A DNA stretch of 64,000 bases, taken from positions 124,001 to 188,000 of the forward strand of contig QHVT01000010.1 in assembly GCA_003223645.1 (NCBI GenBank), read 5' to 3'. Positions 23,882-43,509 of this stretch are shown here, piece after piece. The first letter of the stretch is position 1; each line of letters starts with the position of its first letter. The DNA is from Acidobacteriota bacterium. Lineage in GTDB: Bacteria > Acidobacteriota > Thermoanaerobaculia > Gp7-AA8. Made by a program: the position numbers and the translations under genes. The notes beneath the pieces are model-generated. The model worked only from the letters and a program-made list of their open reading frames with translations, ran no database searches and had not been told where the DNA came from.

Positions 23882-23888
23882 GGCGCGC

Positions 23889-24030
23889 GGGACTCTAGCA
23901 GAACGCGACTGCACGCCTGTGCTCCCGCGCCCGCGCCCGTGCCCGCTCCCGTGCCCCGGGCGGGTGGCGAGCGAAGCGACAGAACCCACCCACCCCGGGC
24001 GCGGGAGCGGGCACGGGCGCGGGAGCGGGC
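23889..24030. repeat. CGCGCCCG-array inverted repeat, copy 3, with conserved flank
   Basis: The inverted array spans 23921-24030, with a core in reverse orientation (GGCGAGCGAAGCGACAGAAC). To its left, bases about 23889-23916 (beginning GACTCTAGCAGAACGCGACT) are identical to the left flank of copy 4 at about 32480-32507. The unit is therefore larger than the palindrome alone. It lies in the divergent gap between DPP IV and the phosphatase gene. Confidence 0.85.
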
Positions 24031-24134
24031 GGCGGGTACACGTCGGAACGCCGCCGTCTTCGGCGGCTGGCCCGGCGGCGTCCTCGCGGACGCGTGTAGG
24101 CGCATAATCATGCACATACTCACAAAAGTTTGAT

Positions 24135-25427: not shown

Positions 25428-28400
25428 TCGGGCGCACACTGGGCCACTACCGCGTCACCGATCGCCTCGGCGAGGGCGGGATGGGCGTCGTCTATCGCGC
25501 CGAGGATTTGAAACTCGGACGAATCGTCGCGCTGAAGTTCCTGCCACCTGAGCTGACGCGCGATCCCGAGTCGAAGAAGCGCTTCGAGCGCGAGGCGAAG
25601 GCCGCCTCGCAGCTCGATCATCCGAACATCTGCACGATCCTCGACTTCGGCGAGAGCGAAGACGACGGGCAGATGTACCTGGCGATGCCGTGCTACGACG
25701 GCGAGTCGCTCGCGCAGCGCGTGGAGCATGGTCCGATGCCGCTCGCCGAGGCAGCCAGGATCATCGAGCAGATCGCGCGGGGACTGGGGAAAGCGCACGC
25801 CAACGGCATCGTTCATCGCGACATCAAGCCGGACAACGTGATGGTGACGCGCGACGGCGTCGCGAAGATCCTCGACTTCGGTCTGGCCAAGCTCCAGCTG
25901 GCGTCGCGCATCACCAAGACGAATACGACCGTCGGCACCGCGGCGTACATGCCCCCCGAACAAATCCGCGGAGAAAACGTCGGACCGCAGGCCGACATCT
26001 GGTCCCTCGGCATCGTCTTCTTCGAACTGCTGACCGGCCGGCTGCCGTTCCGCGGCGAGTACATCGAAGCGCTCGCGTACGCGATCCTTAATGAACAGCC
26101 GGAGAGCATCCCCGAACATCCGGACGCCGATCGCATCATCAAGCGGATGCTGCGCAAGGATCCGCTGCAGCGTTACCAGACCATCGACGAATTCCTCGCG
26201 GACCTGCTCGAGCGGAAACGCTCGCGCGTCGATAAACATCAGCTCCCGAACGGCGCGCGACTCGGGCCGTATGAAATCGTGAAGCCGGTCTCGACGAGCG
26301 TCTTTCTCGCGAAAGACACACGCCTCGCTCGTGAAGTCGCGATCAAAGTTCTGCCGCCCGAGTTTCCGGAGATCGATCGCTTCCGCCGCGACGCGAAAGC
26401 GATCTCGCACCTGACGCATCTGAATGTCTGCACGCTCTTCGACGTCGGCGAGCAGGAAGGCGTCGATTACGTGGTGATGGAGTTTCTCGAGGGCGAGACG
26501 CTCGCGCAGAAGAAGACTCCGCTGCCGGTTGCGCAGGTGCTGAAGATCGGGATGCAGATCGCCGACGGCCTCGCGGCCGCGCACAAACACGGAGTCGTGC
26601 ATCGCGACCTGCGGCTTGCGAACGTGATGATCACGAAGTCGGGTGTCGCGAAGCTGCTCGACTTTGGACTCGCACGCGACGCGGGCGCGTACCTCTCGCC
26701 GGAGCAGATCGAAGGAAAAGAAGCCGACTCGCGCGCCGACATCTTCGCGCTCGGCCTCCTGCTGTACGAGCTCGCCACCGGCCGCCCGCCCTTCAACGCC
26801 GCGAGCAAAGCGGGGCTCATGGCCGCGATCCTCGAGCACGACGCCGCGCCGCTTCGACAAATCCGTTCCGCGATTCCGCCCGCGCTCGATCGCTTGATCC
26901 GCACCTGCCTCGAGAAAAATCCCGACGACCGCTTCTCGTCCGCGCACGACGTGATGCTGGAACTGCGAGCGATGATGGAGACACCGTCGGTCGTTCGTAA
27001 ACGCGTTCCGTACGGCGCGATCGCGGCGGTGCTCGTCATCGCCGCGATCGGATACGCGCTCTATCGCTTCGGCGGCACGCGTGCCGTCGCTCCGCGTCCG
27101 CGCACGTTCACGCAGCTCACGTTCACGGAAGGGCTCAACACGTTCCCGACGATCGCGCCCGACGGAAAGTCGATCGCGTACGTTTCGGCGCAGTCGGGAC
27201 AACGCGACATCTACATCCAGCGCGTCGACGGACGGACGGCCGTCAATCTCACGAACGACTCGCCCTACGACGACTCCGAGCCCGCGTTTTCGTTCGACGG
27301 ATCACAGATCGCGTTTCGGTCCGAGCGCGACGGAGGCGGCATCTTCATCATGGGCGTCACCGGCGAGTCGGTGCGGAGGCTGACGGATTTCGGGCATAAC
27401 CCGACTTGGTCGCCGGACGGAATGCGCATCGCGGTCTCGACGGCCGGAGTCGAAGTGAAGCCGCACATGCGCACCGTCGTGCCGGGCGAGCTGTGGCTGA
27501 TCGACACACGAACCGGCGAAAAGAAGCCGCTCACTCAGCATGGAAGCGGCGGCCCCGACTTCGGACGCGACAGCGATGCCGTGCAGCCGAGCTGGTCGCC
27601 GCACGGCAAGCGGATCGCGTTCTGGGGAATCTCCGATCAGCAATGGACGCGCGATCTCTGGACGATCGATCCCGATGCGCCCGAGCCGAAGCGGACGGTC
27701 GTGCGCGTGACCTCCGATCCCGCGCTGGATTGGAATCCCGTCTGGTCGCCGGACGGGAAGTATCTCTACTTCGGCAGCAATCGCGACGGAACGCTGAACC
27801 TCTGGCGGATCGCAATCGATGAAACGAAGGGAATGCCGGCGGGAGCGCCTGAGCCGCTGTCGCTGCCCGCGCCGCTGGCCGCCAATTTCAGTTTCTCGCG
27901 CGACGGCGACCTCGCCTACGTTGCGATGACGCGCTCGCACCGCCTGCTGGCATTACCGATCGATGCGAACAACACGCGCATGGGGTCGCCGCGGCCGCTG
28001 TTCGGCACCTCGCAGGAGATCGCGAGCTTTCAACCGTCGTCCGATGGGCAGATGATCGCGTTCATGACCGTCAGCGGCGCGAGCGAGAATCTGTTCGTCG
28101 CCAATCCGGACGGCAGCCGTTTGCGGCGGCTGACGAACGATGCCGTCAAAGATCGCGCGGTGATCTGGTCGCCCGACGACAAGACGCTCTACTTCTATTC
28201 GAATCGCGATGGTCCGTATCACATCTGGAGCATCCGAGCCGACGGCAGCAGCCTCGCGCGTGTGACCGACGACGCGGATCTGCAGCGTCACGGCCTCCGC
28301 GATCTCTATTTGTCGGATGTCTCGCCCGATGGACGGACGCTCGTCGCGCTCGGCGAGCGCTCGATCGCACTCGTACACCTCGACCGGCCGATCGCGAGTC

Positions 28401-28789
28401 GCGTCGAGGCGCTGCCGGTCATCATGGACGGACCGAGGTTCTCGCCGGATGGAAAATGGCTCGCCGGGTTCAGCATCGATCCGGATACCGCGCCCGCGGG
28501 CATCACGCTCTACTCATTGCAAACCGGACGTCACGAACTGTTGCTGGACCACGGCATCACGCCGTTGTGGCTTCCCGATGGAAGGCACCTGATTTTTTTC
28601 GAAGCGCAGAGCATCGGGATCCTGGACATCGCGACTCGCCGCGTGGCCATGCTGCCGTTCACGCCGTTGACGGGAGTCGACTTCAGGCTATTCCGTCCGT
28701 TCGTGTCCGCCGACGGCTCCACGCTGTACATCCGCCAGACTCTGGAGCAAGGCAACGTATGGATCGCCGCTTTCAAAAGTGAGCGGTAG
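25424..28789 (+). CDS. tandem Ser/Thr kinase-pseudokinase with TolB-like beta-propeller
   Basis: 1121-residue membrane protein. The first kinase domain (residues about 8-265) is complete: LGEGGMGVVY loop, VALKFLPPE lysine, H131-R-D133-I-K-P-D-N138, DFG at D151 and an APE-like PPEQ. The second (about 285-515) keeps VAIKVLPPEF and DFG but lacks a glycine-rich loop (PVSTSVFLAKD), has HRDLRLAN (R397 instead of the catalytic-loop Lys) and a very short activation segment, so it is probably a pseudokinase or regulatory domain. A transmembrane helix (AIAAVLVIAAIGYALYRF) near residue 530 is followed by repeated SPDGK-type WD40/TolB blades, presumably periplasmic. The start at 25424 is fixed by the ATGA overlap with the phosphatase gene. 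Confidence 0.93.
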   Translation: MIGRTLGHYRVTDRLGEGGMGVVYRAEDLKLGRIVALKFLPPELTRDPESKKRFEREAKAASQLDHPNICTILDFGESEDDGQMYLAMPCYDGESLAQRVEHGPMPLAEAARIIEQIARGLGKAHANGIVHRDIKPDNVMVTRDGVAKILDFGLAKLQLASRITKTNTTVGTAAYMPPEQIRGENVGPQADIWSLGIVFFELLTGRLPFRGEYIEALAYAILNEQPESIPEHPDADRIIKRMLRKDPLQRYQTIDEFLADLLERKRSRVDKHQLPNGARLGPYEIVKPVSTSVFLAKDTRLAREVAIKVLPPEFPEIDRFRRDAKAISHLTHLNVCTLFDVGEQEGVDYVVMEFLEGETLAQKKTPLPVAQVLKIGMQIADGLAAAHKHGVVHRDLRLANVMITKSGVAKLLDFGLARDAGAYLSPEQIEGKEADSRADIFALGLLLYELATGRPPFNAASKAGLMAAILEHDAAPLRQIRSAIPPALDRLIRTCLEKNPDDRFSSAHDVMLELRAMMETPSVVRKRVPYGAIAAVLVIAAIGYALYRFGGTRAVAPRPRTFTQLTFTEGLNTFPTIAPDGKSIAYVSAQSGQRDIYIQRVDGRTAVNLTNDSPYDDSEPAFSFDGSQIAFRSERDGGGIFIMGVTGESVRRLTDFGHNPTWSPDGMRIAVSTAGVEVKPHMRTVVPGELWLIDTRTGEKKPLTQHGSGGPDFGRDSDAVQPSWSPHGKRIAFWGISDQQWTRDLWTIDPDAPEPKRTVVRVTSDPALDWNPVWSPDGKYLYFGSNRDGTLNLWRIAIDETKGMPAGAPEPLSLPAPLAANFSFSRDGDLAYVAMTRSHRLLALPIDANNTRMGSPRPLFGTSQEIASFQPSSDGQMIAFMTVSGASENLFVANPDGSRLRRLTNDAVKDRAVIWSPDDKTLYFYSNRDGPYHIWSIRADGSSLARVTDDADLQRHGLRDLYLSDVSPDGRTLVALGERSIALVHLDRPIASRVEALPVIMDGPRFSPDGKWLAGFSIDPDTAPAGITLYSLQTGRHELLLDHGITPLWLPDGRHLIFFEAQSIGILDIATRRVAMLPFTPLTGVDFRLFRPFVSADGSTLYIRQTLEQGNVWIAAFKSER

Positions 28790-28856
28790 GTTTTTCACCG
28801 CACCAGACACTCCTTAGATGAGGGCTTCCGGTCCGTACCCGAACAAAGGAGTGGTG

Positions 28857-29117
28857 ATGGCAAAGATCAGAGATCTGGGAATCAGTTTCATTCCCGAGGC
28901 CAGACAGCCGGAGCACGCCGGTGTCTTCGCCGCGGGTAAAAAGAAGCCGCCGCCTTGCTACGGCGTATCGTGTGAAAAATCGCAATGTCCCACCGCCGCA
29001 ACCGGCGGCAATAAAAAGCCGGCGGAGAAGAAAAAGAAAACGATCTCCCGCAACGCAGTCGAGCAGCTCCACGCTCAAATGCAGCAGAAGATCGCGCGGA
29101 TGGAGCTCACGAAATAG
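28857..29117 (+). CDS. small Cys-containing peptide, candidate RiPP (lanthipeptide-like) precursor
   Basis: 86-residue peptide that starts at an ATG with AAAGGAG just upstream (28846-28852). The N-terminal part (MAKIRDLGISFIPEARQPEH) looks like a leader. A central segment, residues 31-50 (PPPCYGVSCEKSQCPTAATG), carries C34, C39 and C44 with S38, S42, T46 and T49, the residues needed for thioether rings. A strongly basic stretch (KKPAEKKKKT) follows, then a C-terminal helix (NAVEQLHAQMQQKIARMEL). A core in the middle, not at the end, is unusual. Its TAG shares one base with the GTG of the HopA1-like gene, which ties it to the modification enzymes. The assignment rests mainly on context. Confidence 0.72.
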   Translation: MAKIRDLGISFIPEARQPEHAGVFAAGKKKPPPCYGVSCEKSQCPTAATGGNKKPAEKKKKTISRNAVEQLHAQMQQKIARMELTK

Positions 29118-30202
29118 TGGCGGGGCCGGAAGCCCACGTCCGCGCGAGCCCGTTCGTCGAGCTCAAACGACTCGCCGGCCTCGACGCCGCACAGCGCGCG
29201 CAGTTCGCGGAGCTGGAAAGCGATCCGAATTTCTACGGCCTCTTCATTCCAAAGCCTCCGCTCACGACGAATCTGAAAGCGGTCGAACGCGAAACCGCCG
29301 AGCTCTTTCTTTCGCTGGCAATCCCGTCGCGCGTATTGGTTGACGATCACATCATCGATCTCGTGCTCGACGGCGTTCTCGAGATCGAAAGCGACGGCGA
29401 ATTCGTTTGTGGCGCTGACGCCGTCTCCATCCTCTGCGATCCGATCTCATCGACGGCGACTCGTGGACTCTCGCGTGATGCGCTCCTGCACGCGCAGGAT
29501 CTCGAGTTGAGCGACGCGCGGGAATTGACGTTCGCGCTCTACCTCTACAACCGCATCCCGCTCACGCCGTTCTGGAAAGCGCGCTTCCCGAATCCCGCCG
29601 CCATCCTCGCCCACCTCGGCGCCGATCGCCTCGCCGGTCATTGGGCCGCGGGCCGGCACGATCACTGGCTCAGTTGGTCGAGAACGACGTCGCACGACGC
29701 CAGCGCCGTCACGTACAAGCTCTACGTCAGTCCGCGCCCTGAACGGATCCGCGACGCGTTCGACGCCGTCGTGCGCGTGCTCGCCGAAGTTCCGGAGACG
29801 GCGTTCAAGATCGGCGACAGCGCGGCCGGTCTTCTCCGTCCCGACAAGCTCGTCCTTTACTTCACGACGCGCGAGCAGCTCGACGAAGTCGCGGATGCAC
29901 TGCGCCGCGAGCTGTCCGGCTGCGACGCGCACGGCGTTCCCTTCACCGCCGGCCTCGATGACAGCGGTCTCCTTTCGTGGGGCATCGATCCGCCCGACAA
30001 CGATCGCCCGCTGCGCTGGCTCGACTCGGAGAGCTGGCGTCTCTGGATCGCGCAGCGCCTCGGTGCCGCGCTGTCGGTCGCCGCGTTGGCGCGCAGCGCA
30101 TCGGCGATCGAGCCGTGGCGCTTCGCCGTCGAGCGCGTCCGCCGCGCGGGCGTCGACGTCGACACGTGGACTCCCTCGCCTCGCCTCTGGAGCCGCGCGT
30201 GA
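29117..30202 (+). CDS. HopA1-like protein, candidate phospho-Ser/Thr lyase of the RiPP locus
   Basis: 361-residue cytoplasmic protein. The N-terminal half is helical (FVELKRLAGLDAAQRAQFAE). The C-terminal half, from about residue 195, resembles the HopA1 effector family used as the lyase (LanY/LxmY-type) in class V lanthipeptide clusters: YKLYVSPRPERIRDAF, FKIGDSAAGLLRPDKLVLYF, HGVPFTAGLDDSGLLSWGID. The lysines in FKIG and RPDK are candidate catalytic residues. I recognise this from memory of the family and cannot score it. GTG at 29117 overlaps the stop of the precursor (TAGTG), and its own TGA overlaps the GTG of the kinase-cyclase (GTGA). It could supply the elimination step that class III/IV synthetases carry in their own N-terminal domain. 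Confidence 0.68.
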   Translation: MAGPEAHVRASPFVELKRLAGLDAAQRAQFAELESDPNFYGLFIPKPPLTTNLKAVERETAELFLSLAIPSRVLVDDHIIDLVLDGVLEIESDGEFVCGADAVSILCDPISSTATRGLSRDALLHAQDLELSDARELTFALYLYNRIPLTPFWKARFPNPAAILAHLGADRLAGHWAAGRHDHWLSWSRTTSHDASAVTYKLYVSPRPERIRDAFDAVVRVLAEVPETAFKIGDSAAGLLRPDKLVLYFTTREQLDEVADALRRELSGCDAHGVPFTAGLDDSGLLSWGIDPPDNDRPLRWLDSESWRLWIAQRLGAALSVAALARSASAIEPWRFAVERVRRAGVDVDTWTPSPRLWSRA

Positions 30203-32440
30203 ACATCACCGCGCCGTTCGTGCTGCAGGACGATGTCGTCCTCATCCCCTGCGCCGACTTGAGCGACGACATGCGCGGACGCATCTCGTTCGACGAGGGC
30301 GACTTCACGCTGTCGCGCCGTCACGGCCGCGCGCTGACGCAAGTCATCGACGGAGAGACGGCCGCGTTGCTCTCGCGCTTCCGCGAGCCGTGCACCATCG
30401 TCGACGCGGTGTTCGAGAACAGCCGCTCCTTCGGCAGGGATGCGAAGACGTCGCTCGACGAGGTCCTGCCGCATCTCGAGACCTTTCTCGACCATCGCGT
30501 CCTCGTGCCGGCGGGCTCCAAGCACGAAACGTCGATCCGGCCGCGCTACGACACCGGGACGACGATCGGCGGATGGGAGATCGTCCGCTGCGCGAGCCTG
30601 ATCGAAGACACGGAGATCTATCAGCTGCGCAAGGGAAGCGAAGTCGCCGCGTTGAAGATCGCGCGCACGCGCGACGTGCGTCCGCTCTTCGACAACGAGG
30701 CGTCGGTGCTGCGTCATCTCGACGGCAGCGGCATCGCGCCGCGCCTCATCGATTCCGGCGAGCATGAGAAGCGGCCTTATCTCATTCTGGAATGGGCAAA
30801 CGGCGTCGAAGCGTCCGTGGCCGCGGCGCAGCGCCGCTGCGACCGCACCGCGCTGATCGAGATCTGCGCGTCGATCGCGGCGGCGTACGCGACGTTGCAC
30901 GCACGCGGCGTGCTGCATGCCGACGTGCATCCGCGAAACGTCATCGTGGGCGAAAAGGTGCTGCTCCTCGACTTCGGCTACTCGCGCGTCGCAGACCGCC
31001 CGCCGGTCGTCGGCCGCGCCGGCGTCAACTACTTCTTCGAACCGGAGTATCCCACCGTCGAAGCGTCTCCGCGCGGCGAGCAGTACGCGATCGCGGCGCT
31101 GCTCTATCTGCTCCTCGCCGGCGATCACTATCTCGACTTCCGTCTCGAACGCGAGGAGATGGCGCGGCAGATCGCGAACGATCCGCCGCTGCCGTTCGCG
31201 AAGCGCGGCATTCCGCCGTGGCCCGACGTGGAAGCGATTCTCTTCCGCGCGCTCGAAAAACATCCCGAGCGGCGACACGTGTCGGTCGAAGAGCTGGCAG
31301 CGCTGCTCGCCGGGGCGCGCGACGTTGCGGCGGCGGAGTCGCTGGCAACACCGGTGTCGCAGGAGGCAAAGACGTTTCTCGAGTCGACGCTGCAATCGTT
31401 CGCGCGCCGCGGCGCGATGTTCCGTTCGCGCTATCCGCGGGCGCCGAAGGCATCGATCAACTTCGGCTGCGCGGGCGCGGCGGCGGGGATGCTTCGCATT
31501 GCCGAGGCGCGCGGCGATCCCGCGCTGCTCGCGCTGTCGAGAGTCTGGTGCGCGCGCGCGACGTCGCTCGTCGGCGATGACGGCGCGTTCTACAGCGACG
31601 AAGGCAACCTGTCGCGCGAGTCGATCGGCGACGTCACCCCGTATCACACCGAGTCCGGCGTCCACGCCGCGCGCGCGATGATTGCCGCCGCGAGCGGCAT
31701 CCACACGGACGATGCCGTCGACGCATTTCTCGCCGCTTCGCGCAAGCCATGCGCGGAGCTCGATCTCACCCTCGGCCGTTCCGGCAGCCTGCTGGCCGCG
31801 TCGATGCTGCTCGCGCTCGGCGAGCACGAAGAGCTGCGCGCGTTCGGAACGGAGACTAAACACGCGATCTGGAGCACGCTGCGTGATCGTCCCTCCATCG
31901 ACGGCTCCCTCGGCATGGCCCACGGCTGGACCGGTTATCTCTACGCCGCGCTGCGCTGGTGCGCCGCGTCGGGCGATGCGCTGCCGTCATCGCTGATCGA
32001 GCGGCTTCACGAGCTTGCGTCTCTGAAGATCGTCGAAGGCCGCGGTGCGTATTGGCCGTCGTGGGAAGCAATGACCGCCAGCTGGTGCAACGGCAGTGCG
32101 GGCCAGGTCTTCCTCTTCGCGCTCGCACATCGATTGTTCGGCGACGCGCAGTGGCTGCAGCTCGCGGAGCTCGCGGCATGGCACGCGTGGGACGAGCCGC
32201 GCGCCAACGCGAGCCTCTGCTGCGGCACCGCCGGCCGCGCCTACGCGCTGCTCAATCTCTACAAACAGAGCGGCGCAAAAGAATGGCTGAGCCGCGCGCG
32301 CCAGCTCGCGAACGACGCCGCGCGCGCGGCATCGGATACCGCGGAGCGACCGAACGCGCTGTGGAAGGGAGAGCTCGGCGTCGCCGTGCTCATCGCCGAT
32401 CTCGCCTCGCCCGAAAACGCGCGAATGCCATTTTTCGAAT

Positions 32441-32442
<2 letters not shown>
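30199..32442 (+). CDS. RRE-like/kinase/LanC-like fusion, lanthipeptide synthetase candidate
   Basis: 747-residue protein, start GTG at 30199 (GTGA overlap). Residues 1-115 look like a PqqD-like peptide-recognition domain (FTLSRRHGRALTQVIDG, then FREPCTIVDAVF and FLDHRVLVPAG). Residues about 120-370 form a protein kinase with the catalytic loop H240-A-D242-V-H-P-R-N247 and D258-F-G. Residues about 390-745 form a LanC-like alpha/alpha toroid: GRSGSLLA, GMAHGWTG (H575), SWCNGSAGQ (C630) and LCCGTAGRAY (C674, C675). The usual zinc ligands are Cys, Cys and His; here all three would be cysteines, as in the ProcM-type clade. It would phosphorylate Ser/Thr of the peptide and close thioether rings. 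No OspF/SpvC-type lyase domain is seen. Confidence 0.85.
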
Positions 32443-32631
<189 letters not shown>

Positions 32632-35540: not shown

Positions 35541-35659
35541 CCTTTCCCGCGCCTCTTTCCCCGTGCCCGTGCCCGCGCCCGCTCCCGCGCCCGGGGCGGG
35601 TGGGTAACGTAGTCGCTTCGCGCCGCCCGCCCCGGGCGCGGGCGCGGGCGCGGGAAAGG
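35541..35659. repeat. CGCGCCCG-array inverted repeat, copy 5
   Basis: It extends from CCTTTCCCGCGCC to GGCGCGGGAAAGG around the core GGTAACGTAGTCGCTTCGCG. It lies in the divergent gap between acnA and the M1 aminopeptidase gene and leaves about 40 bases on either side for promoters. Confidence 0.85.
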
Positions 35660-35701
35660 CCGCGATAACGAAGCACGCCGTGGCCGAGTATCCTTCCGCG
35701 C

Positions 35702-42153: not shown

Positions 42154-43509
42154 TTTCGAAGTCCGGTTCTCGTTTCCCGTTGCGTGGCGTCCACTCCGCC
42201 GCGCAACGGGAAAATTCGGAAATCAAAAAGCAGAAGGCAGAGATGTGAAGCGCCGATCGTCACCCTGAAGTCGCGAAGACGATGAAGGGTTTGAACAGCG
42301 AGCGTCGTAGTTGAGATCCTCGGCCGCCGACCTCTTGCGAGAAACCGGCGGCCGAGAGCGGCCGCCGCTCCACAGGTTCGTGATCGAAGGCTCCCTGGAG
42401 GATTCAAGCAGGCCGCATGTTGCTCGTCTGTGGCGAGCTCTGGCCGCGCACCCAGTTCGTGGTCACGATCCTCGTCGCCGAATGCATCGATCCCGTCGGC
42501 GGAACCAATGCGGCTCTGACACTTCAGACCCGCGTATTCGACGCGACGCCGTGGATCCCTATGCCGCATGTCATCACTCACTTCGCCGCAAGTGACCGTC
42601 ACTTCGCCGCATGTCATCGCCGCTTCGCCGAACCTGACCTCTCACAGCCACGTCCTCAACGCGACGTCATGCATCACTTCGCCGCAAGTCATCGTCACTT
42701 CGCGGGACCTCACCCGGCTCTGACCGCTCAGAGCCGCGCACATCGCTGTACGTCATCGCTCTCCTCTTGTATCCCTCGCGGCTCTGAGACTTCAGAGCCG
42801 TGTCCTCAACGTGACACCGTGGATCACGACGCCGCATGTCATCACTCATTTCGCCGCAAGTGACCGTCACTTCGCCGCAAGTGACCGTCACTTCGCCGAA
42901 CCAATCCGGCTCTGACCGCTCAGAGCCGCGTCCTCAACGCGACGTCATGCATCACTTCGCCGCAAGTCATCGATCCCTTCGCGGGACCTCACCCGGCTCT
43001 GACCGCTCAGAGCCGCGCACATCGCTGTACGTCATCGCTCTCCTCTTGTATCCCTCGCGGCTCTGAGACTTCAGAGCCGTGTCCTCAACGTGACACCGTG
43101 GATCACGACGCCGCATGTCATCACTCACTTCGCCGCAAGTCATCGTCACTTCGCCGAATGTCATCGACGACTTCGCCGAACCAATCCGGCACTGACCGCT
43201 CAGAGCCGCATCCCCAAATACGACGTCATGCATCACTTCGCCGCAAGTCATCGATCTCTTCGCCGGACCTCATCCGCCTCTGGGCCCTCAGAGCCGCGCG
43301 CATCGCTGCACGTCGTCGATCTCCTCCTACATCCCTGGCGTCTCTGACATTTCAGAGCCGCGAGCGTATGCCGATGTCGCAGGCTACTCTTCGTATTTTG
43401 AGATCCTTCGTCGCGCTTTCGCCGACTCAGGATGACGGGATGCGGTCCCGACATTTCTGCTTTCTGCTTTTTGCTTTGGGGCGCAGGAAAGCCTGCGCTA
43501 CACGAAGGA
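42154..43509. repeat. 1.35-kb gene-free block with 278-bp tandem repeats full of hairpins
   Basis: No credible gene. From about 42651 a unit repeats with a period of 278 bases: its GACGTCATG landmark is at 42663, 42941 and, at 281 bases, 43222. The third copy is more diverged and ends near 43370. A degenerate partial copy covers 42520-42650. Each unit has hairpins with stem GGCTCTGA/TCAGAGCC and 4-nt loops (CCGC at 42716-42735, GACT at 42780-42799), plus a micro-repeat ACTTCGCCGCAAGT. Left of the array are a degraded GTGGAGCGGC-family copy (42318-42375) and an AGAAAGC word. Right of it are single arms of two other families (about 43391-43475). Confidence 0.88.

What the first reader, a model, noticed from the sequence alone, without database searches (positions are those of the whole stretch)
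28857..29117. Precursor candidate has its Cys/Ser/Thr segment in the middle
Typical lanthipeptide cores are C-terminal. Here C34, C39 and C44 with S38, S42, T46 and T49 lie centrally, followed by a Lys-rich run and a helix. Either the C-terminal part is a follower peptide, or the basic stretch is a cleavage site and the product is internal. Alternatively the peptide may be modified for an internal, non-secreted role.
Basis: partly seen in the sequence, partly recalled or inferred. Interest (0 to 1): 0.7.

Follow-up and report, generated by a model that had tools for sequence, protein, structure and literature searches.

The report
Lanthipeptide precursor with an internal core
This small gene encodes a peptide whose cysteine-rich middle is probably stitched into thioether rings by two neighbouring enzymes, while both of its ends act as handles; the same three-gene set recurs in many unrelated bacteria with an enzyme layout that fits none of the described lanthipeptide classes.

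Summary
In detail: 28857-29117 (+) encodes an 86-aa peptide with C34, S38, C39, S42, C44, T46 and T49 in the middle, followed by a Lys-rich run and a helix. It overlaps a 361-aa lyase gene, which overlaps a 747-aa kinase-cyclase gene. The A-Y-KC cassette recurs beside a second copy in the same genome and in about 40 loci from many phyla. There the N-terminal strand motif (KDLMIxV; here IRDLGISFIP) and a C-terminal amphipathic helix are conserved. The central Cys/Ser/Thr segment varies from about 10 to 165 residues and often holds tandem repeats. So the core is internal, with a leader and a follower-like tail. Y folds like class V LanY, HopA1 and the LanL/LanKC lyase domains, with the catalytic Lys, Lys, Arg and Tyr invariant. 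KC is a protein kinase plus a zinc LanC (Cys/Cys-Cys ligands in 39/39), but its N-terminus is an RRE fold instead of a lyase. Y's N-terminal domain is a relative of that RRE. This layout (RRE-lyase + RRE-kinase-LanC + tripartite precursor) meets none of the class III-V definitions tested. Ring formation, cleavage, the follower's role and function are inferred. The Lys run is not a conserved cleavage site.

The parts
28847..28851 (+). Shine-Dalgarno AGGAG, 5 nt before the ATG of the precursor gene
   Evidence: read directly from the sequence
28857..29117 (+). precursor peptide gene (A), 86 aa
28857..28937 (+). N-terminal leader (residues 1-27) with the conserved strand motif KIRDLGISFIP (family: FxVKDLMIxVxP)
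   Evidence: leave-one-out HMM rank 1 for 39 of 41 precursors incl. window; 0/5000 shuffles vs L018
28956..29003 (+). central core, C34-T49: three Cys, two Ser, two Thr
   Evidence: position equivalent to the hypervariable Cys/Ser/Thr segment of homologues
29013..29039 (+). Lys-rich linker (residues 53-61); not conserved in the closest relatives
   Evidence: alignment A6
29043..29114 (+). C-terminal amphipathic helix (residues 63-86; helix inferred from sequence), follower-like; equivalent to LxxLKxQLxxALxxVE of homologues
   Evidence: 1/5000 shuffles vs L018 tail; C-flank HMM
29117..30202 (+). Y: 361-aa stand-alone phospho-Ser/Thr lyase, LanY/HopA1-like
   Evidence: AlphaFold model pLDDT 92.7; PDB matches LxmY, HopA1, CuvL, ThurKC, SpvC/OspF; K201, K231, R241, Y248 invariant in 39 homologues
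29117..29431 (+). N-terminal domain of Y (about residues 1-105), RRE-like
   Evidence: hhalign to the KC N-domain, probability 91%, E 9e-7, reversed control 0.1%; TigE RRE Z 6.8, 2.5 A over 70 residues
30199..32442 (+). KC: 747-aa RRE - protein kinase - zinc LanC cyclase
   Evidence: Pfam Pkinase E 7.6e-15 and LANC_like E 4.3e-24; alignment A2
30199..30537 (+). RRE-fold N-terminal domain of KC, where a LanL has its lyase
   Evidence: model pLDDT 85.5; best PDB matches TigE, PqqD, MibB, TbiB1 + leader, NisB
30631..31395 (+). Ser/Thr kinase domain with catalytic K153, E167, HxD motif, N247, D258
31753..32436 (+). LanC cyclase domain with WC630NG and C674-C675-G zinc ligands
   Evidence: WC[NHY]G and CCG in 39 of 39 KC homologues

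Best explanation
The gene encodes a tripartite lanthipeptide-type precursor: N-terminal leader, internal core, C-terminal follower-like helix. Most likely mechanism: the KDLMIxV-type leader strand docks on the RRE domain of KC, and perhaps of Y. The C-terminal helix helps hold or orient the substrate, possibly on the second RRE-like domain or between the two enzymes. The KC kinase phosphorylates core Ser/Thr, Y eliminates phosphate to give dehydroalanine and dehydrobutyrine, and the zinc LanC domain of KC adds C34, C39 and C44 to these to form up to three (methyl)lanthionine rings. The core is later freed by unlinked proteases or stays within the modified protein. Shown here by computation: the gene, its conserved three-part layout, operon linkage, the folds of Y and the KC N-domain, and conserved catalytic and zinc residues. 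Inferred: all chemistry, peptide binding, the follower's role, cleavage and function.
For: Y and KC lie on one strand within 100 nt in 41 of 45 loci. A precursor with the same layout lies next to them in 38 of 43 retrieved loci. In leave-one-out tests the N-terminal motif is the top-ranked ORF for 39 of 41 precursors and the C-flank for 29 of 41. The flanks are conserved while the core varies: in the two precursors of L021, N-terminus 90%, core 48%, tail 83% identity; L012 vs L018, 60/33/57%. The core span is 15.7% Cys and 11.4% Thr, with a median of 48 residues and range 1-165. Y matches LxmY at Z 16.2, HopA1 15.7 and CuvL 15.3. K201, K231, R241 and Y248 match the spacing of SpvC K104/K136/R148/Y158 and CaoY R187/K219/R229/Y236 (PMC9486802) and are invariant in 39 homologues. 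The KC N-domain's best PDB matches are RREs. The LanC ligands are intact in 39 of 39.
Against: No product, modification or expression data. No transporter or protease is shared among neighbours. The window's own tail is short and its weak match to the family C-flank model alone (8 bits, 2 of 2000 shuffles score more) is convincing only with the L018 comparison and the context. RRE matches of the KC N-domain (Z up to 10) exceed those of other winged-helix proteins (Z 7.8-8.6) only moderately. In very close pairs (L023/L024, L036/L040, L026/L027) the core is about as conserved as the flanks. The fold of residues 63-86 of A was not predicted.
Confidence: 0.8

Rival explanations
1. The C-terminal helix is not a follower to be discarded but a working part of the mature product: the protein stays full length, with a ring-containing middle held between two functional ends (for example a cell-bound, metal-binding or assembly-forming modified protein).
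For: No protease or exporter is shared among the neighbours. Many homologues carry large repetitive cores, up to 165 residues, and long two-helix tails of about 60 residues, which look more like a structural protein than a small antibiotic.
Against: The tail is conserved like the leader rather than like the core, as expected for an enzyme-recognition element. In the window and several relatives it shrinks to one helix of about 24 residues.
Confidence: 0.25
2. The basic stretches on both sides of the core (KKKPPP and KKPAEKKKK) are the processing signals, and a trypsin-like protease frees the internal product; the tail is a by-product.
For: The window core lies between two basic stretches; short-core relatives L026, L027 and L031 also have Pro/Lys/Arg-rich linkers before the helix.
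Against: L012, in the same genome, and L018, the closest relative, have no such run; most homologues lack it.
Confidence: 0.12
3. Y and KC modify the core but the end product is not a thioether peptide: dehydration or phosphorylation only, or another cross-link.
For: Only the machinery is inferred; other pathways with HopA1-like lyases use other partners and give other end groups (PMC9415263).
Against: The LanC domain keeps its zinc ligands in all 39 homologues, and the cores pair many Cys with Ser/Thr.
Confidence: 0.1
4. The peptide is a small unmodified zinc-binding or housekeeping protein that happens to lie next to the synthetase genes.
For: Three Cys in a short basic peptide.
Against: Homologues vary completely in the Cys segment and were found beside Y-KC; no Pfam or NCBIfam domain matches the window peptide.
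Confidence: 0.02

Closest known systems
Class IV lanthipeptide synthetase LanL (e.g. CuvL, PDB 8car)
   Same: Protein kinase domain followed by a zinc LanC cyclase; KC scores higher with the class IV model (135 bits) than with class III (84 bits); Y resembles the CuvL lyase domain (Z 15.3).
   Different: The lyase is a separate gene; KC starts with an RRE fold; KC is far below the class IV cut-off (135 vs 650 bits); zinc ligands Cys / Cys-Cys; precursor has an internal core and a C-terminal helix.
Class V lanthipeptide dehydratase LanK/LanY (lexapeptide LxmKY, cacaoidin CaoKY)
   Same: Stand-alone HopA1-like lyase; Y's best structural match is LxmY (Z 16.2); no His at the SpvC H106 position (Y203 here), as in CaoY.
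   Different: The kinase is fused to a zinc LanC; Y keeps Lys where CaoY has Arg187; Y has an RRE-like N-terminal domain; precursor tripartite.
Class III LanKC (ThurKC, PneKC, SalKC)
   Same: Same lyase fold as Y (Z 11-14) and the same kind of kinase.
   Different: KC has zinc ligands and no lyase domain. PMC10604976 states that the class II-V enzymes contain no identifiable RRE.
RRE proteins (PqqD, TbiB1, NisB/MibB RRE, TigE)
   Same: Fold of the KC N-domain (Z 8-10) and, more weakly, of the Y N-domain.
   Different: Fused to a lanthipeptide kinase-cyclase and to a lanthipeptide lyase; peptide binding untested.

Membership tests
[quoted passage not shown]
   KC residues 1-113 have an RRE fold; the lyase is the separate gene Y
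Class IV lanthipeptide synthetase (LanL) | score over the NCBIfam LanL cut-off | tested here: not met
   135 bits against a cut-off of 650
Class IV lanthipeptide synthetase (LanL) | LanC domain with zinc ligands | tested here: met
   WC630NG and C674-C675-G; both motifs in 39 of 39 homologues
Class III (LanKC) | cyclase domain without zinc ligands | tested here: not met
   ligands present in 39 of 39
Class V (LanK + LanY) | stand-alone HopA1-like lyase | tested here: met
   LxmY Z 16.2, HopA1 Z 15.7; catalytic residues invariant
Class V (LanK + LanY) | separate aminoglycoside-phosphotransferase-type kinase, no LanC | tested here: not met
   the kinase is fused to LanC; Pkinase (E 7.6e-15) fits better than APH (E 5.4e-9)
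RRE-dependent RiPP | RRE fold in a modifying enzyme | tested here: met
   for KC; weaker for Y
RRE-dependent RiPP | RRE binds the leader peptide | not testable with these tools
   no complex prediction or binding assay available
Lanthipeptide | lanthionine or methyllanthionine in the product | not testable with these tools
   needs mass spectrometry
RiPP with follower peptide | conserved segment C-terminal to the core | tested here: met
   C-flank leave-one-out HMM and shuffles
RiPP with follower peptide | follower needed for modification and removed afterwards | not testable with these tools
   needs co-expression of truncated precursors

The most novel reading that the evidence does not exclude
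A further, so far unnamed class of lanthipeptide synthetases: a two-protein machine in which an RRE-lyase and an RRE-kinase-LanC, each carrying its own related recognition domain, grip the two ends of a tripartite precursor and modify an internal core of 10 to 165 residues, including long tandem-repeat cores.
Probability: 0.5. Interest if true: 0.8.

Novelty: new variant of a known kind. Interest (0 to 1): 0.7.

Why it matters
Described lanthipeptide precursors put the core at the C-terminus, and the class II-V enzymes are reported to lack an identifiable RRE (PMC10604976). Here a lyase and a kinase-cyclase, separate proteins, each carry an RRE-like domain, and the precursor has conserved segments at both ends of an internal, highly variable core. 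If both ends are gripped, this is a natural way to modify very long or repetitive cores, and so a scaffold for building multi-ring peptides. It links class IV and class V, so it bears on how the lyase, kinase and cyclase came to be fused. It occurs in many phyla, and cultured strains exist. Miners limited to precursors of 30-120 aa (PMC7268733) or to the fixed class models would tend to miss or misfile it.

Tried and rejected
Pfam and NCBIfam gave nothing for the window peptide, and no shared meaningful family for 35 precursors. Sequence search of the PDB with the Y and KC N-domain profiles gave only chance-level hits; the folds were needed. Pfam PqqD, HopA1 and RamC_N matches were too rare or weak to count alone. 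A common exporter or protease was sought among 107 neighbouring ORFs; the best-represented families were protein kinases (4 members), PD40, response regulators and TetR (3 each), so no such partner is claimed. Zinc-binding housekeeping protein: rejected. Lys run as a family-wide cleavage site: rejected. Candidates in L017/L059 and L015/L060 were too unlike the rest to count as precursors; L049 and L053 gave none, and in L056 Y lies at the contig end. Papers searched by words: no description of this layout was found, but the library holds open-licence papers only, so an earlier description in a subscription journal cannot be ruled out.

Full report
Observation. The ORF at 28857-29117 (+) is as described: 86 aa, with C34, S38, C39, S42, C44, T46 and T49 in the middle, then a Lys-rich run and a helix-like tail. 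It has a good ribosome-binding site (AGGAG, 5 nt before the ATG). Its stop codon overlaps the start of a 361-aa gene (Y, 29117-30202), which overlaps a 747-aa gene (KC, GTG 30199 to 32442). The three genes look like a translationally coupled operon.

Homologues. Y was searched first in 396 genomes of the phylum. This gave a second cassette in the same genome (L012) and five other genomes. A profile found Y in 13 of 148 genomes of the class, and a scan of the genome collection with a Y alignment gave 43 loci. Their titles name Acidobacteriota, Gemmatimonadota, Planctomycetota, Chloroflexota, Cyanobacteria, Pseudomonadota, Actinomycetota, Nitrospirota, Bacteroidota and Verrucomicrobiota. Many are metagenome bins, which can be mislabelled, but cultured strains are among them. 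Relatives titled Thermoanaerobaculia lie in the same family and class as the window genome, so the window is probably from that class of Acidobacteriota (inference).

Linkage. Y and KC lie on one strand within 100 nt in 41 of 45 loci. A precursor was recognised in 38 of the 43 scanned loci, usually directly upstream of Y (median gap 54 nt); in L046 it lies downstream of KC, and L021 has two. This count was made by reading the ORF lists.

What varies and what is kept. The N-terminal motif is FxVKDLMIxVxP in most members (window: MAKIRDLGISFIP; L018: MPKIKDLGINVVP; L012: MPKVKDLGVTVVP). HMMs of the first 20 residues, each built without the locus tested, rank the true precursor first among 2000 background ORFs in 39 of 41 cases, the window included. 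HMMs of the C-terminal flank do so in 29 of 41; the window ranks second. The window N-terminus beats 5000 of 5000 shuffles against L018, and its tail (ISRNAVEQLHAQMQQKIARME vs LTRESIAQLREQLQQQIAQLD) beats 4999 of 5000. The middle differs: tandem CTDCTTQQFSICGTSP in L012, GCYASG in L013, ATPVTCVTAT in L032, CGACSHAAT in L021. The Cys span has a median of 48 residues (range 1-165) and is 15.7% Cys, 7.2% Ser and 11.4% Thr. In the two precursors of L021 the identities are 90% (N-terminus), 48% (core) and 83% (tail); for L012 vs L018, 60, 33 and 57%. In very close pairs all three parts are similar. So the middle behaves as a core and both ends as recognition elements.

Enzymes. Y: AlphaFold model pLDDT 92.7. 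Its best PDB matches are LxmY of the lexapeptide dehydratase (Z 16.2), HopA1 (15.7), CuvL (class IV, 15.3), ThurKC, SalKC and PneKC (class III), and OspF/SpvC. K201, K231, R241 and Y248 fall at the spacing of SpvC K104, K136, R148, Y158 and CaoY R187, K219, R229, Y236 (PMC9486802), and are invariant in 39 sequences. The catalytic His of SpvC (H106) is replaced (Y203), as in class V, while the first Lys is kept, as in class III/IV. This mapping is by spacing, not by a superposition seen residue by residue. KC: kinase (E 7.6e-15) and LanC (E 4.3e-24) by Pfam; kinase catalytic residues conserved; LanC ligands WCxG and CCG in 39 of 39. The three-Cys ligand set recalls ProcM-type cyclases (own knowledge, not tested). 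The KC N-domain (residues 1-113; pLDDT 85.5) matches TigE, PqqD, TbiB1 with leader, MibB, NisB and ThcOx, that is, RREs, where a LanL has its lyase. The Y N-domain is related to it by profile comparison (probability 91%, E 9e-7; reversed control 0.1%) and matches the TigE RRE (Z 6.8). So both enzymes probably carry an RRE-like domain; this is firmer for KC than for Y.

Mechanism. Inferred from these families: leader strand on an RRE, kinase phosphorylation of core Ser/Thr, lyase elimination, zinc-LanC ring closure with C34, C39 and C44, with the tail helping to hold the substrate. Nothing here shows binding, modification, cleavage or export. No exporter or protease is shared by the neighbours.

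Comparison with known systems. The layout meets some defining features of class IV (zinc LanC, kinase) and of class V (stand-alone HopA1-like lyase) but fails others: no lyase in KC, 135 bits against a class IV cut-off of 650, and a kinase fused to LanC. Class III is excluded by the zinc ligands. PMC10604976 states that class II-V enzymes contain no identifiable RRE. Mining of class III/IV clusters has used kinase plus LanC models and precursors of 30-120 aa (PMC7268733), so such loci may have been binned as class IV and longer precursors missed. No paper found in the open library describes this layout, which is not proof of novelty.

Verdict. It is a new variant of the lanthipeptide kind, perhaps a class of its own.

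Noticed in passing
window 23882-24031, 32472-32627, 35560-35664: Interspersed GC-rich palindromic element (tandem CCCGYG units forming hairpins, copies 86-100% alike) in gaps between genes, one just downstream of KC; similar reading frames occur upstream of the precursor in L012.
   Followed up: partly
G000:C10:7894-8967 (L084) and G000:C1:16415-17359 (L085): Two further LanC-like genes in the same genome, open frames 627 and 739 aa, outside the A-Y-KC cassettes.
   Followed up: no
L058, L078, L080: A precursor subgroup whose middle has almost no Cys but a conserved DPNCGGTSLETIPTPITPV stretch.
   Followed up: no
L029:7211-7948: A precursor that reads as two fused copies (two leader motifs, two helical tails), the first without a Cys core.
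   Followed up: no
L042, L045, L048, L051: A precursor subgroup with a different leader motif (like RAKxLRVQIPCG); L042 and L051 share the core CDAGCSDSPQSA(V/F)CPPPPP.
   Followed up: no
window 25430-28786: Upstream neighbour encodes two kinase domains followed by a PD40 beta-propeller; Pkinase/PD40 proteins also flank a few other cassettes.
   Followed up: partly
window 42510-43360: Tandem repeat of about 279 bp, 3.1 copies, with inner 21-bp repeats.
   Followed up: no
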